A stretch of 64,000 bases of DNA, from contig NZ_RBIL01000002.1 in the NCBI RefSeq assembly GCF_003633755.1, positions 1,426,001 to 1,490,000 of the forward strand. Reading direction: 5' to 3'. The translations under genes and the position numbers were made by a program. Under the pieces are notes generated by a model. It did no database searches. It was not told where the DNA came from and saw nothing but the letters and a program-made list of their open reading frames with translations. This DNA is from Solirubrobacter pauli. GTDB taxonomy: Bacteria > Actinomycetota > Thermoleophilia > Solirubrobacterales > Solirubrobacteraceae. This document shows, one piece after another, positions 33,531-35,798 of this stretch. How positions within the stretch are numbered: the stretch's first letter is position 1; each line of letters begins with the position of its first letter.

Positions 33531-34475
33531 ATGAGTGCTGCCGCGTACGAGGCCGAGTACCAGCAGCTCATCGAGCCGCACCGGCGCGAGCTTCACGCGC
33601 ACTGCTACCGGATGCTGGGCTCCGTGCAGGACGCCGAGGACGCGCTGCAAGAAGCGTTGCTGCGCGCCTGGAAGGCCTTCGACCGCTTCGAGGGCCGCGC
33701 GCAGCCGAAGACCTGGCTGTACCGGATCGCGACCAACGCGTGCCTGGACGCGCTCGCCCGCCGCAAGGGCAAGCGCGAGCTGCCGATCGACCGCGGCCCG
33801 GACGAGCCACCGCTGACCGAGACGGCCTGGCTGGAGCCGTACCCGGACGACCCGGGCGCGAGCTACGAGCAGCGCGAGAGCGTCGAGCTGGCGTTCATCG
33901 CCGCGCTCCAGCACCTCCCGGCCACCCAGCGTGCCGTGCTGATCCTGCGCGAGGTGCTCGGCTTCAGCGCCAAGGAGGTCGCCGAGATCTGCGACACGAC
34001 CCCGGCCTCGGTCAACAGCGCCATGCAGCGCGCCCGGGCGGCGATCGACGAGCGGCTCCCGCGGCAGTCCCAGCAGGCGACGCTGCAGGCGCTCGGCGAC
34101 GAGCAGGTCAGGGCGATCGTCGAGCGCTACGTCGCGGCGTGGAACCGGGGTGACGTCGACGCGGTCGTCGCGATGCTGGCCGAGGACGCGACGTTCTCGA
34201 TGCCGCCGATCGCCGAGTGGTACCGCGGCCAGGAGCCGATCCGCGCGTTCCTGCCGACCGGCCCGCTGTCGATCCCGCGCGTCTTCGTCCCCATCCACGC
34301 GAACGGCCAGCCGGCGTTCGGGACGTACAAGCTGATCGACGGCGTGTGGCTGCGCAACGCCATCCACGTGATCACGCTCGACGCCGCCGGCGCGATCACC
34401 GACGCGGTGGCCTTCCTGGACGTGGAGCTCTTCCCGCGCTTCGGCCTCTCCGAAGATGCGTGGAAGTCCGATTGA
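33531..34475 (+). CDS. ECF-type RNA polymerase sigma factor with C-terminal SnoaL-like domain (SigG-like)
   Basis: A 314-residue protein. Sigma region 2 (about 9-80) contains HCYRMLGSVQDAEDALQEAL and the -10 recognition stretch KTWLYRIATNACLDALARR. Region 4 (about 120-180) has LPATQRAVLILREVLGFSAK and VNSAMQRARAAIDE. Residues 190-312 are a SnoaL/NTF2-like domain (IVERYVAAWNRGDVDAVVAM) as in SigG/SigJ/ECF41-type factors, where it tunes activity and replaces an anti-sigma factor. The start codon ATG is at 33531. No anti-sigma gene is adjacent, fitting this class. The divergent neighbour is a penicillin-binding protein, so an envelope-related regulon is possible. Confidence 0.93.
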   Translation: MSAAAYEAEYQQLIEPHRRELHAHCYRMLGSVQDAEDALQEALLRAWKAFDRFEGRAQPKTWLYRIATNACLDALARRKGKRELPIDRGPDEPPLTETAWLEPYPDDPGASYEQRESVELAFIAALQHLPATQRAVLILREVLGFSAKEVAEICDTTPASVNSAMQRARAAIDERLPRQSQQATLQALGDEQVRAIVERYVAAWNRGDVDAVVAMLAEDATFSMPPIAEWYRGQEPIRAFLPTGPLSIPRVFVPIHANGQPAFGTYKLIDGVWLRNAIHVITLDAAGAITDAVAFLDVELFPRFGLSEDAWKSD

Positions 34476-34483
34476 CGGATCAC

Positions 34484-34598
34484 GTAGGATTGGTGGCGAT
34501 GAGGCGAGTAGCCCGCACCGTCGCCCTGTAAGACCCGGCCGATTCGCCGGGAGGGCGACGGGTGTCCCCGTCAAGCACGTCCCGGAGCTCTACTGACC
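34484..34598 (+). promoter_or_regulatory. Attenuator-like leader of the aminotransferase gene
   Basis: Between the sigma factor and aminotransferase genes lies a short uORF (34499-34531) and overlapping pairing segments. GGCGATG (34495-34501) can pair with CGTCGCC (34519-34525, one G-U). GTCGCCCT (34520-34527) is the exact complement of AGGGCGAC (34552-34559). CCCGGC (34534-34539) pairs with GCCGGG (34546-34551). GACGGG (34557-34562) pairs with CCCGTC (34567-34572). The first and second pairings exclude each other, as do the second and fourth (shared bases 34557-34559). This is the logic of ribosome-controlled attenuation. No poly-T follows the last hairpin, so control may act on translation (GGAG at 34584) or through Rho. 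Confidence 0.55.
34499..34531 (+). CDS. Leader peptide MRRVARTVAL
   Basis: A ten-residue uORF: ATG, nine sense codons, TAA. An AGGA (34486-34489) lies 9 nt before the ATG. The codons are Arg-Arg-Val-Ala-Arg-Thr-Val-Ala-Leu, rich in Val and Ala. The GTC-GCC-CTG codons at its end are part of two competing stems, so a ribosome stalled or terminating here would decide which stem forms. TAA is an uncommon stop in so GC-rich a genome. Its position fits a sensor of amino-acid or charged-tRNA supply for the aminotransferase gene 67 nt downstream. Conservation in relatives has not been tested. Confidence 0.5.
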   Translation: MRRVARTVAL

Positions 34599-35798
34599 AT
34601 GGCCATCTCGCCTCCCGCGCCGCTCGCCGGCGCACCCCTGTCCGACCGCCTCGCCGCCACGCAGTCCTCGCCCGTGCGCGAGCTGCTGCAGATCGCGATG
34701 CGGCCGGAGATCATCTCCCTCGCCGGCGGCCTGCCCGCGCCGGACACGTTCGACGTGCCCGGCCTGCGCGCCGCGTTCGACGAGGTTCTTGCCGGCCCCG
34801 ACGCGATCCGCGCGCTGCAGTACTCCACGACCGAGGGCGACCCGGCGTTACGCGACCGGCTGGCCGCGTTCATGGCCAAGCGCGGGCTGGAGGTCGCCGG
34901 CGACGACCTGCTGATCACCACCGGCTCCCAGCAGGCGCTCGGGCTGATCGCGAGCGCGCTGCTCAACCAGGGCGACGTCGTCCTCGTCGAGGACCCGACG
35001 TACCTGGCCGCGCTGCAGGCCTTCCAGCTCGCCGACCTGCGCGCGGTGGCCGTCCCGTCCGACGACTTCGGGCCCGATCCGGACGCCCTGCTGGAGATCG
35101 CCCGCCGGGAGGGCGCGAAGGTCGCGTACCTGATCCCGACGTTCCAGAACCCGACGGGCCGCACCATGCCGCACGAGCGGCGCGCCGCGATCGCCGAGGC
35201 GGCGGCGCAGGCCGGGCTGTGGCTGGTGGAGGACGACCCGTACAGCGCGCTGCGGCTCGAAGGGGAGGACGCCGACCTGCTCGCCGCCTACGCGCCCGAG
35301 CGCACGATCGTCATCCAGACGCTGTCGAAGGTGCTCTCCCCGGGCCTGCGGATCGGCTACGTGCGCGCGCCCCAGGCGCTGCGCGGCCCGCTGGCCGTCG
35401 CCAAGCAGGCGGCCGACCTGCACACGTCGACGATCGCGCAGCTGGCCGCGGAGCGCTGGCTGGCGACGCACGACCTCAGCGACCACATCGCCGCGCTCGC
35501 CGCCCACTACCGCCCGCGCCGCGACGCCCTGCTCGACGGGCTCCGGGAGCACTTGCCCGCGGGGACGAAGCTGACGGAGCCCGAGGGCGGCCTGTTCATC
35601 TGGGTCGAGCTGCCGGAGGGCCACGACGCCGAGGCGATCCTCCCGCGTGCCCTCGATCGCGGCGTGGCCTTCGTGCCGGGGAAGTACTTCTACGCGGGCG
35701 AGGCGCCGCGCGGGACGCTGCGCGTCTCCTTCGCCACCGCCACGCCGGAGGAGCTGCGCGAGGGCGCCGCGCGTCTCGGCGCGGCCTGCGCGGGGTAG
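34599..35798 (+). CDS. PLP-dependent aminotransferase (class I/II, 2-aminoadipate/MocR-like branch)
   Basis: A 399-residue fold-type I aminotransferase. IISLAGGLPAPDTFD (about 33-47), YSTTEGDPALRDRLAAFM, LITTGSQQALGLIASALLN, VLVEDPTYLAALQAF, AYLIPTFQNPTGRTMP (about 180), LVEDDPYSALRL and VIQTLSKVLSPGLRIGY, with the PLP Lys in TLSKVLSPG near residue 245, mark the family related to alpha-aminoadipate and branched-chain or aromatic aminotransferases. The amino donor cannot be fixed by sequence. ATG 34599 is preceded by GGAG at 11 nt. The leader with a Val/Ala-rich uORF suggests amino-acid control. Downstream lie a small acidic gene and an aldo/keto reductase. Confidence 0.92.
   Translation: MAISPPAPLAGAPLSDRLAATQSSPVRELLQIAMRPEIISLAGGLPAPDTFDVPGLRAAFDEVLAGPDAIRALQYSTTEGDPALRDRLAAFMAKRGLEVAGDDLLITTGSQQALGLIASALLNQGDVVLVEDPTYLAALQAFQLADLRAVAVPSDDFGPDPDALLEIARREGAKVAYLIPTFQNPTGRTMPHERRAAIAEAAAQAGLWLVEDDPYSALRLEGEDADLLAAYAPERTIVIQTLSKVLSPGLRIGYVRAPQALRGPLAVAKQAADLHTSTIAQLAAERWLATHDLSDHIAALAAHYRPRRDALLDGLREHLPAGTKLTEPEGGLFIWVELPEGHDAEAILPRALDRGVAFVPGKYFYAGEAPRGTLRVSFATATPEELREGAARLGAACAG

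What the first reader, a model, noticed from the sequence alone, without database searches (positions are those of the whole stretch)
34484..34598. Attenuator-like leader with a ten-residue uORF before an aminotransferase gene
A well-placed Shine-Dalgarno (AGGA, 9 nt before ATG) drives the uORF MRRVARTVAL. Its last codons (GTCGCCCT, 34520-34527) are an exact 8-nt complement of AGGGCGAC (34552-34559), enclosing a perfect CCCGGC/GCCGGG hairpin. The same codons can instead pair with GGCGATG over the uORF start. A third stem, GACGGG/CCCGTC (34557-34572), excludes the long pairing. Mutually exclusive stems keyed to uORF translation are the hallmark of attenuation, known for amino-acid biosynthesis genes (trp, ilv, leu). 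I know of no described leader with a Val/Ala/Arg uORF before this aminotransferase class. The Val and Ala codons could match the amino acids the enzyme handles (inference).
Basis: partly seen in the sequence, partly recalled or inferred. Interest (0 to 1): 0.8.

Follow-up and report, generated by a model that had tools for sequence, protein, structure and literature searches.

The report
Leaderless uORF leader before aminotransferase gene
In soil bacteria of the genus Solirubrobacter the mRNA of one aminotransferase gene starts with a tiny ten-codon reading frame whose RNA is predicted to fold onto the start of the enzyme gene, so translating the tiny frame could switch the enzyme on; this is a conserved, apparently undescribed variant of a known kind of control.

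Summary
The uORF and hairpin exist at the stated coordinates and are conserved in all seven Solirubrobacter genomes held (one copy each, none convincing elsewhere in the family), even where the upstream gene differs. The hairpin over the uORF's last codons and stop shows two compensatory base-pair changes.

The 'Shine-Dalgarno' AGGA lies inside a -10 box (TAGGAT/TACCAT) that sits 7-8 nt before the ATG in every species, so the uORF is most likely leaderless. The alternative pairing over the uORF start would then lie partly outside the transcript. The third stem is broken in the two most distant species.

Codons 1-5 of the uORF (GAGGCGAG..GCC) are complementary to the aminotransferase start (GGCCATCTCGCCTC). 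This long-range helix is in the minimum-energy fold of all six distinct leaders.

Best reading: translational control by a leaderless uORF, in which a ribosome slow on its first (rare) codons frees the aminotransferase start. This is closer to erm/cat or actinobacterial LEU-element logic than to a trp terminator; no U-tract terminator was found. The uORF and hairpin are well supported, the long-range helix moderately, and the signal is unknown. No transcript data were available.

The parts
34485..34490 (+).
   Evidence: TAGGAT/TACCAT 7-8 nt before the uORF ATG in all six distinct leaders; TANNNT peak 6-9 nt before ATG starts in this genome
34499..34531 (+). Leaderless uORF, MRRVARTVAL plus TAA
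   Evidence: Start, frame and stop kept in seven genomes; in L007 the ATG is 9 nt further upstream, in frame, and still 7 nt after a -10 box
34501..34513 (+). 5' arm of long-range helix P1 (GAGGCGAG, UA unpaired, GCC), uORF codons 1-5
   Evidence: In the MFE fold of all six leaders and in the RNAalifold consensus; 12 of 12 core columns invariant
34518..34527 (+). 5' arm of hairpin P2 outer stem (CCGTCGCCCT), uORF codons 7-10
   Evidence: Two pairs with compensatory changes
34534..34551 (+). Inner hairpin of P2, CCCGGC / GCCGGG, just after the uORF stop
   Evidence: Forms in all six leaders
34552..34561 (+). 3' arm of hairpin P2 outer stem (AGGGCGACGG)
34584..34587 (+). Probable Shine-Dalgarno GGAG of the aminotransferase, 11 nt before its ATG
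   Evidence: Read from the sequence; GGAG also in L002-L004 and AGGAG in L006, but not L007, which has AAAGG
34601..34614 (+). 3' arm of P1 (GGC...CUCGCCUC), from the third base of the start codon to codon 6 of the aminotransferase
   Evidence: codons 1-8 identical in five species
34599..35798 (+). PLP-dependent aminotransferase gene (LysN/PH0207-like), the controlled gene

Best explanation
A leaderless-uORF translational control leader. Transcription starts at or next to the uORF ATG (34499). In the ribosome-free RNA the uORF is almost wholly paired: codons 1-5 pair with the start region of the aminotransferase (helix P1), and codons 7-10 form hairpin P2 over the uORF stop. P1 closes the main start. 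A 70S ribosome that has loaded on the 5'-terminal AUG and lingers on the first codons (AGG CGA GTA, all rare in this genome) covers the 5' arms of P1 and P2 and leaves the aminotransferase start more open. A ribosome that finishes quickly, or no ribosome, lets P1 close. The enzyme would thus be made when the uORF's first codons are decoded slowly (Arg/Val-tRNA shortage, or general ribosome slowing), as in erm/cat translational attenuation. Shown by sequence comparison: the conserved leader, the -10 position, uORF start and stop, and P2 with compensatory changes. Supported but not proven: P1. Inferred: that the uORF is translated, the direction of regulation and the signal.
For: Leader present once in each of 7 Solirubrobacter genomes and independent of the upstream gene. 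-10 box 7-8 nt before the uORF ATG in all, with leaderless starts common in the genome. P2 kept with two compensatory pairs. P1 in the MFE of all six leaders and in the alignment consensus. Invariant columns: 12/12 in the uORF core and 14/16 at the main start, against 5/41 in the spacer, while 4-fold sites differ by 21-46% between distinct species. Rare codons AGG, CGA, GTA invariant in five species (CGA and GTA in all six), rare CCT of the gene in five. Covering +1..+27 lowers the opening energy of the main start by 2.5-8.4 kcal/mol in five of six species.
Against: P1 shows no compensatory pair because its columns hardly vary. Pairing as strong occurs at the same distance before 4.9% of sampled genes and somewhere upstream before 23%; synonymous shuffles reach it in 2-6%. 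L007 shows no drop in opening energy when the uORF start is covered. P2's pair statistics on six sequences are modest (27-33 of 500 shuffles reach them). The Shine-Dalgarno itself is not in P1. No expression or 5'-end data.
Confidence: 0.45

Rival explanations
1. Transcription attenuation: P2 (or a Rho-dependent stop in the spacer) ends transcription unless a ribosome stalled on the uORF covers the 5' arm of P2.
For: P2 is the best-supported helix, is very stable and has its 5' arm in the uORF. Actinobacterial leader peptides with hairpins but no U-run are reported (PMC8079986; PMC1262725).
Confidence: 0.25
2. A structured 5' UTR (riboswitch-like, protein-bound or stability element) in which the uORF is incidental.
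For: The strongest conservation is at nucleotide level, not peptide level; changes inside the uORF are mostly amino-acid changing.
Against: A 5'-terminal ATG in frame with the same stop is kept in all leaders, including L007 where the ATG and -10 box moved together by 9 nt; no Rfam match; 5'-terminal AUGs are expected to be translated in leaderless-rich genomes (general knowledge).
Confidence: 0.2
3. A DNA-level element: the inverted repeat and the upstream block are operator or promoter sequences bound by a regulator, and the RNA pairings are by-products.
For: A DNA block GCGTGGA..TCCGA upstream of the -10 box is also conserved in L001-L006; inverted repeats can be operators.
Against: Outer arms of 10 bp separated by a variable loop, with U-G pairs in three species, point to RNA rather than a palindromic operator; it does not explain the conservation of codons at the main start 100 nt downstream.
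Confidence: 0.1

Closest known systems
LEU element upstream of leuA in Actinobacteria (PMC1262725)
   Same: A leader ORF whose codons pair with the initiation region of the downstream gene as a base stem enclosing other helices
   Different: There a leucine codon run pairs with the Shine-Dalgarno and a pseudoknot forms; here uORF codons 1-5, with no codon run, pair with the start codon and codons 2-6, and enclose one hairpin. The downstream gene differs.
Polycysteine leaderless short-ORF attenuators of mycobacteria (Canestrari 2020, cited via PMC9031893)
   Same: A leaderless short ORF before an enzyme gene, proposed to act through ribosome speed
   Different: No cysteine codons and no run of any codon; here a conserved RNA structure links uORF and main start. 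The primary paper was not held.
Leaderless leader peptides of Streptomyces lividans (leuL, trpL, ilvL, thrL and others; PMC8079986)
   Same: Short leaderless ORF before an amino-acid metabolism gene, several without a U-run terminator
   Different: Those peptides are assigned to an amino acid by their codons and to tRNA synthetase or biosynthesis genes; the present one has neither.
erm/cat translational attenuation (general knowledge)
   Same: A ribosome held on the leader ORF would free the main initiation region
   Different: erm/cat leaders have a Shine-Dalgarno and drug-dependent stalling; neither is shown here, and no antibiotic link is known
5'-terminal AUG of E. coli ptrB (Beck and Janssen 2017, cited via PMC9031893)
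   Same: A 5'-terminal AUG before the main ORF that affects its translation
   Different: Single gene in E. coli; the paper was not held, so its structural details were not compared.

Membership tests
Classical amino-acid attenuator (trp/ilv/leu type) | Short translated leader ORF before the structural gene | tested here: inconclusive
   ORF, start and stop conserved in seven genomes; translation not testable here
Classical amino-acid attenuator (trp/ilv/leu type) | Run or enrichment of codons for the amino acid concerned | tested here: not met
   MRRVARTVAL and relatives; at most three Arg in ten residues, one of them lost in L006
Classical amino-acid attenuator (trp/ilv/leu type) | Intrinsic terminator hairpin with U-tract and competing antiterminator | tested here: not met
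   No terminator-like site; the proposed competing stem is not conserved
LEU element (PMC1262725) | Leucine codon run in the leader ORF, located before leuA | tested here: not met
   No Leu run; gene is an aminotransferase
LEU element (PMC1262725) | Base stem between leader ORF codons and the downstream initiation region | tested here: met
   P1 predicted in all six leaders and the consensus; but it covers the start codon, not the Shine-Dalgarno
LEU element (PMC1262725) | Conserved pseudoknot | not tested
   Only nested structures were computed
Leaderless regulatory short ORF | Transcript starts at the ORF's ATG | tested here: inconclusive
   -10 box 7-8 nt before ATG in all, matching a genome-wide peak; no 5'-end data
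Rfam families (4227 models) | Score at or above the family's gathering threshold | tested here: not met
   0 matches in the window; best sub-threshold E about 1, off-site or on the other strand

The most novel reading that the evidence does not exclude
A leaderless uORF whose own first codons serve as the 'anti-start' of the downstream gene, so that ribosome dwell on three rare codons right after 5'-terminal AUG initiation, rather than a run of one amino acid's codons, sets enzyme output: a start-to-start RNA switch linking leaderless initiation to a Shine-Dalgarno-led gene.
Probability: 0.3. Interest if true: 0.7.

Novelty: new variant of a known kind. Interest (0 to 1): 0.5.

Why it matters
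Leaderless uORFs are common in Actinomycetota but few have a defined regulatory architecture. A genus-wide leader in which the uORF start is complementary to the downstream start codon would give a simple, testable case of a leaderless uORF controlling a Shine-Dalgarno-led gene through RNA structure. It would also point to an unrecognised control of a LysN-like aminotransferase in Solirubrobacter, a genus for which no RNA leader was found in the held literature.

Tried and rejected
Short-pattern search for GGCGAGTAGCCC over 151 genomes: too short; the 30 loci it fetched, all from outside Solirubrobacter, looked like chance matches. A homologous leader before orthologues in other genera: none seen in L008-L030 or in Streptomyces and other actinomycetes. 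The +X+ macrolide-arrest motif (from memory) was considered; the peptide does not carry it at the canonical spacing. The GACGGG/CCCGTC stem was rejected as not conserved. Canestrari 2020 and Beck 2017 could not be read. No paper on a Solirubrobacter leader or a uORF before this aminotransferase class was found in the held library. The MAFFT alignments A2/A3 misplace the L006 inner hairpin by one column, which lowers the inner-hairpin pair counts; this was not corrected by hand.

Full report
WHAT IS THERE. The window lies in a 7.1-Mb genome whose close relatives are Solirubrobacter species. The 123-nt gap 34476-34598 separates an ECF sigma factor gene with a C-terminal extension (33531-34475; TIGR02960/PRK08241) from a PLP-dependent aminotransferase (34599-35798). 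The aminotransferase is closest among solved structures to 1x0m and PH0207 (E about 1e-88) and to Thermus 2-aminoadipate transaminase (E 2e-77). No NCBIfam equivalog reaches its cut-off, so its substrate is open.

CONSERVATION. The aminotransferase was found in six congeneric genomes at 73-94% identity; two of them (L004, L005) are near-identical, leaving six distinct leaders with the window's own. The leader is present in all, although the upstream gene differs or ends earlier in several. A covariance model built from the six distinct leaders hits exactly one place in each of seven Solirubrobacter genomes (E 9e-12 to 2e-15) and nothing better than E 0.027 in 139 other family genomes (strict filters). 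Rfam gives nothing. Orthologues in other genera lack the leader; several Streptomyces orthologues instead have a -10-like box directly before their own ATG.

THE uORF IS PROBABLY LEADERLESS. In every leader a TAGGAT or TACCAT hexamer lies 7-8 nt before the uORF ATG. In 464 kb of this genome TANNNT peaks 6-9 nt before ATG starts (7-11 per position against about 1 elsewhere, 328 candidate starts), the signature of leaderless transcripts. In L007 the ATG sits 9 nt further upstream, in frame, and the -10 box moved with it, giving MSRIRRVARTTAP. Start, frame and stop are kept although several residues change. Only three leaderless short uORFs were found before 299 called genes.

HAIRPIN P2. The outer stem (34518-34527 with 34552-34561) and inner hairpin (34534-34539 with 34546-34551) fold in all six leaders at -25 to -33 kcal/mol. 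On the alignment 95% of outer-stem cells pair against 46-73% for slid versions, with two pairs changed on both sides (G-C to A-U; C-G to U-A) and a third varying U-G, U-A, C-G. Six sequences make this suggestive rather than overwhelming (27-33 of 500 shuffles reach the observed values), but together with thermodynamics (top 0.18% of windows) it supports a real RNA element.

Folding the likely transcript (from the uORF A) shows in all six leaders a long-range helix between uORF codons 1-5 (GAGGCGAG..GCC, 34501-34513) and the aminotransferase start (GGC...CUCGCCUC, 34601-34614); RNAalifold on the alignment finds the same helix. Its uORF core, GGCGAGTAGCCC, is invariant (12 of 12 columns), the main arm nearly so (14 of 16), against 5 of 41 in the spacer between, while 4-fold sites of the gene differ by 21-46% between the distinct species. 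The pairing involves codons that are rare in this genome (AGG, CGA, GTA in the uORF, CCT in the gene). In L007 both partners of the two outermost pairs changed, to a non-pair. Caution: P1 has no compensatory pair; equal pairing strength occurs at the same distance before 4.9% of genes and somewhere upstream before 23%; synonymous shuffles reach it in 2-6%.

MECHANISM. Nearly the whole uORF is paired in the ribosome-free RNA: codons 1-5 in P1, codons 7-10 in P2. The computed opening energy of the main start region drops by 2.5-8.4 kcal/mol in five of six species when +1..+27 is covered as by a ribosome. In those five it changes by +0.4 to -3.6 when a ribosome is placed at the stop. L007 shows no drop. 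This fits translational control in which a ribosome slow on the first codons opens the main start. Translation of the uORF, the direction and the signal are inference. Transcription attenuation by P2 or Rho remains possible: P2 overlaps the end of the uORF, and actinobacterial leader peptides without U-run terminators are reported (PMC8079986; PMC1262725). No U-tract terminator is present.

COMPARISON. The nearest described topology found is the LEU element of leuA in Actinobacteria, in which a leader ORF's leucine codons pair with the Shine-Dalgarno as a base stem (PMC1262725); mutational data cited there argue against simple attenuation, a warning for this case too. Leaderless short-ORF attenuators are known in mycobacteria (cysteine runs, via PMC9031893) and S. 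lividans (PMC8079986). This leader lacks a codon run and a terminator, so it is not filed as a classical attenuator, and it lacks the Leu run, so it is not filed as a LEU element.

VERDICT.

Noticed in passing
about 34455-34475 and equivalents in L002-L006: A DNA block GCGTGGA..TCCGA upstream of the -10 box is kept even where the ECF gene ends earlier; possibly an activator site or -35 element.
   Followed up: no
34659-34685 (aminotransferase codons 21-29): A second run of nine codons identical in five species, unexplained by the leader helix.
   Followed up: no
L069, L071, L079, L088, L111, L127: Orthologues in Streptomyces, Actinophytocola and Kibdelosporangium have a -10-like box 6-9 nt before their own ATG, so there the main gene itself may be leaderless.
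   Followed up: partly
L152:18436 (+): Another candidate leaderless uORF (29 codons, MRVSTSPGKVLHMAHQYKLPQVKEIKPGR) 73 nt before a called gene in the same genome.
   Followed up: no
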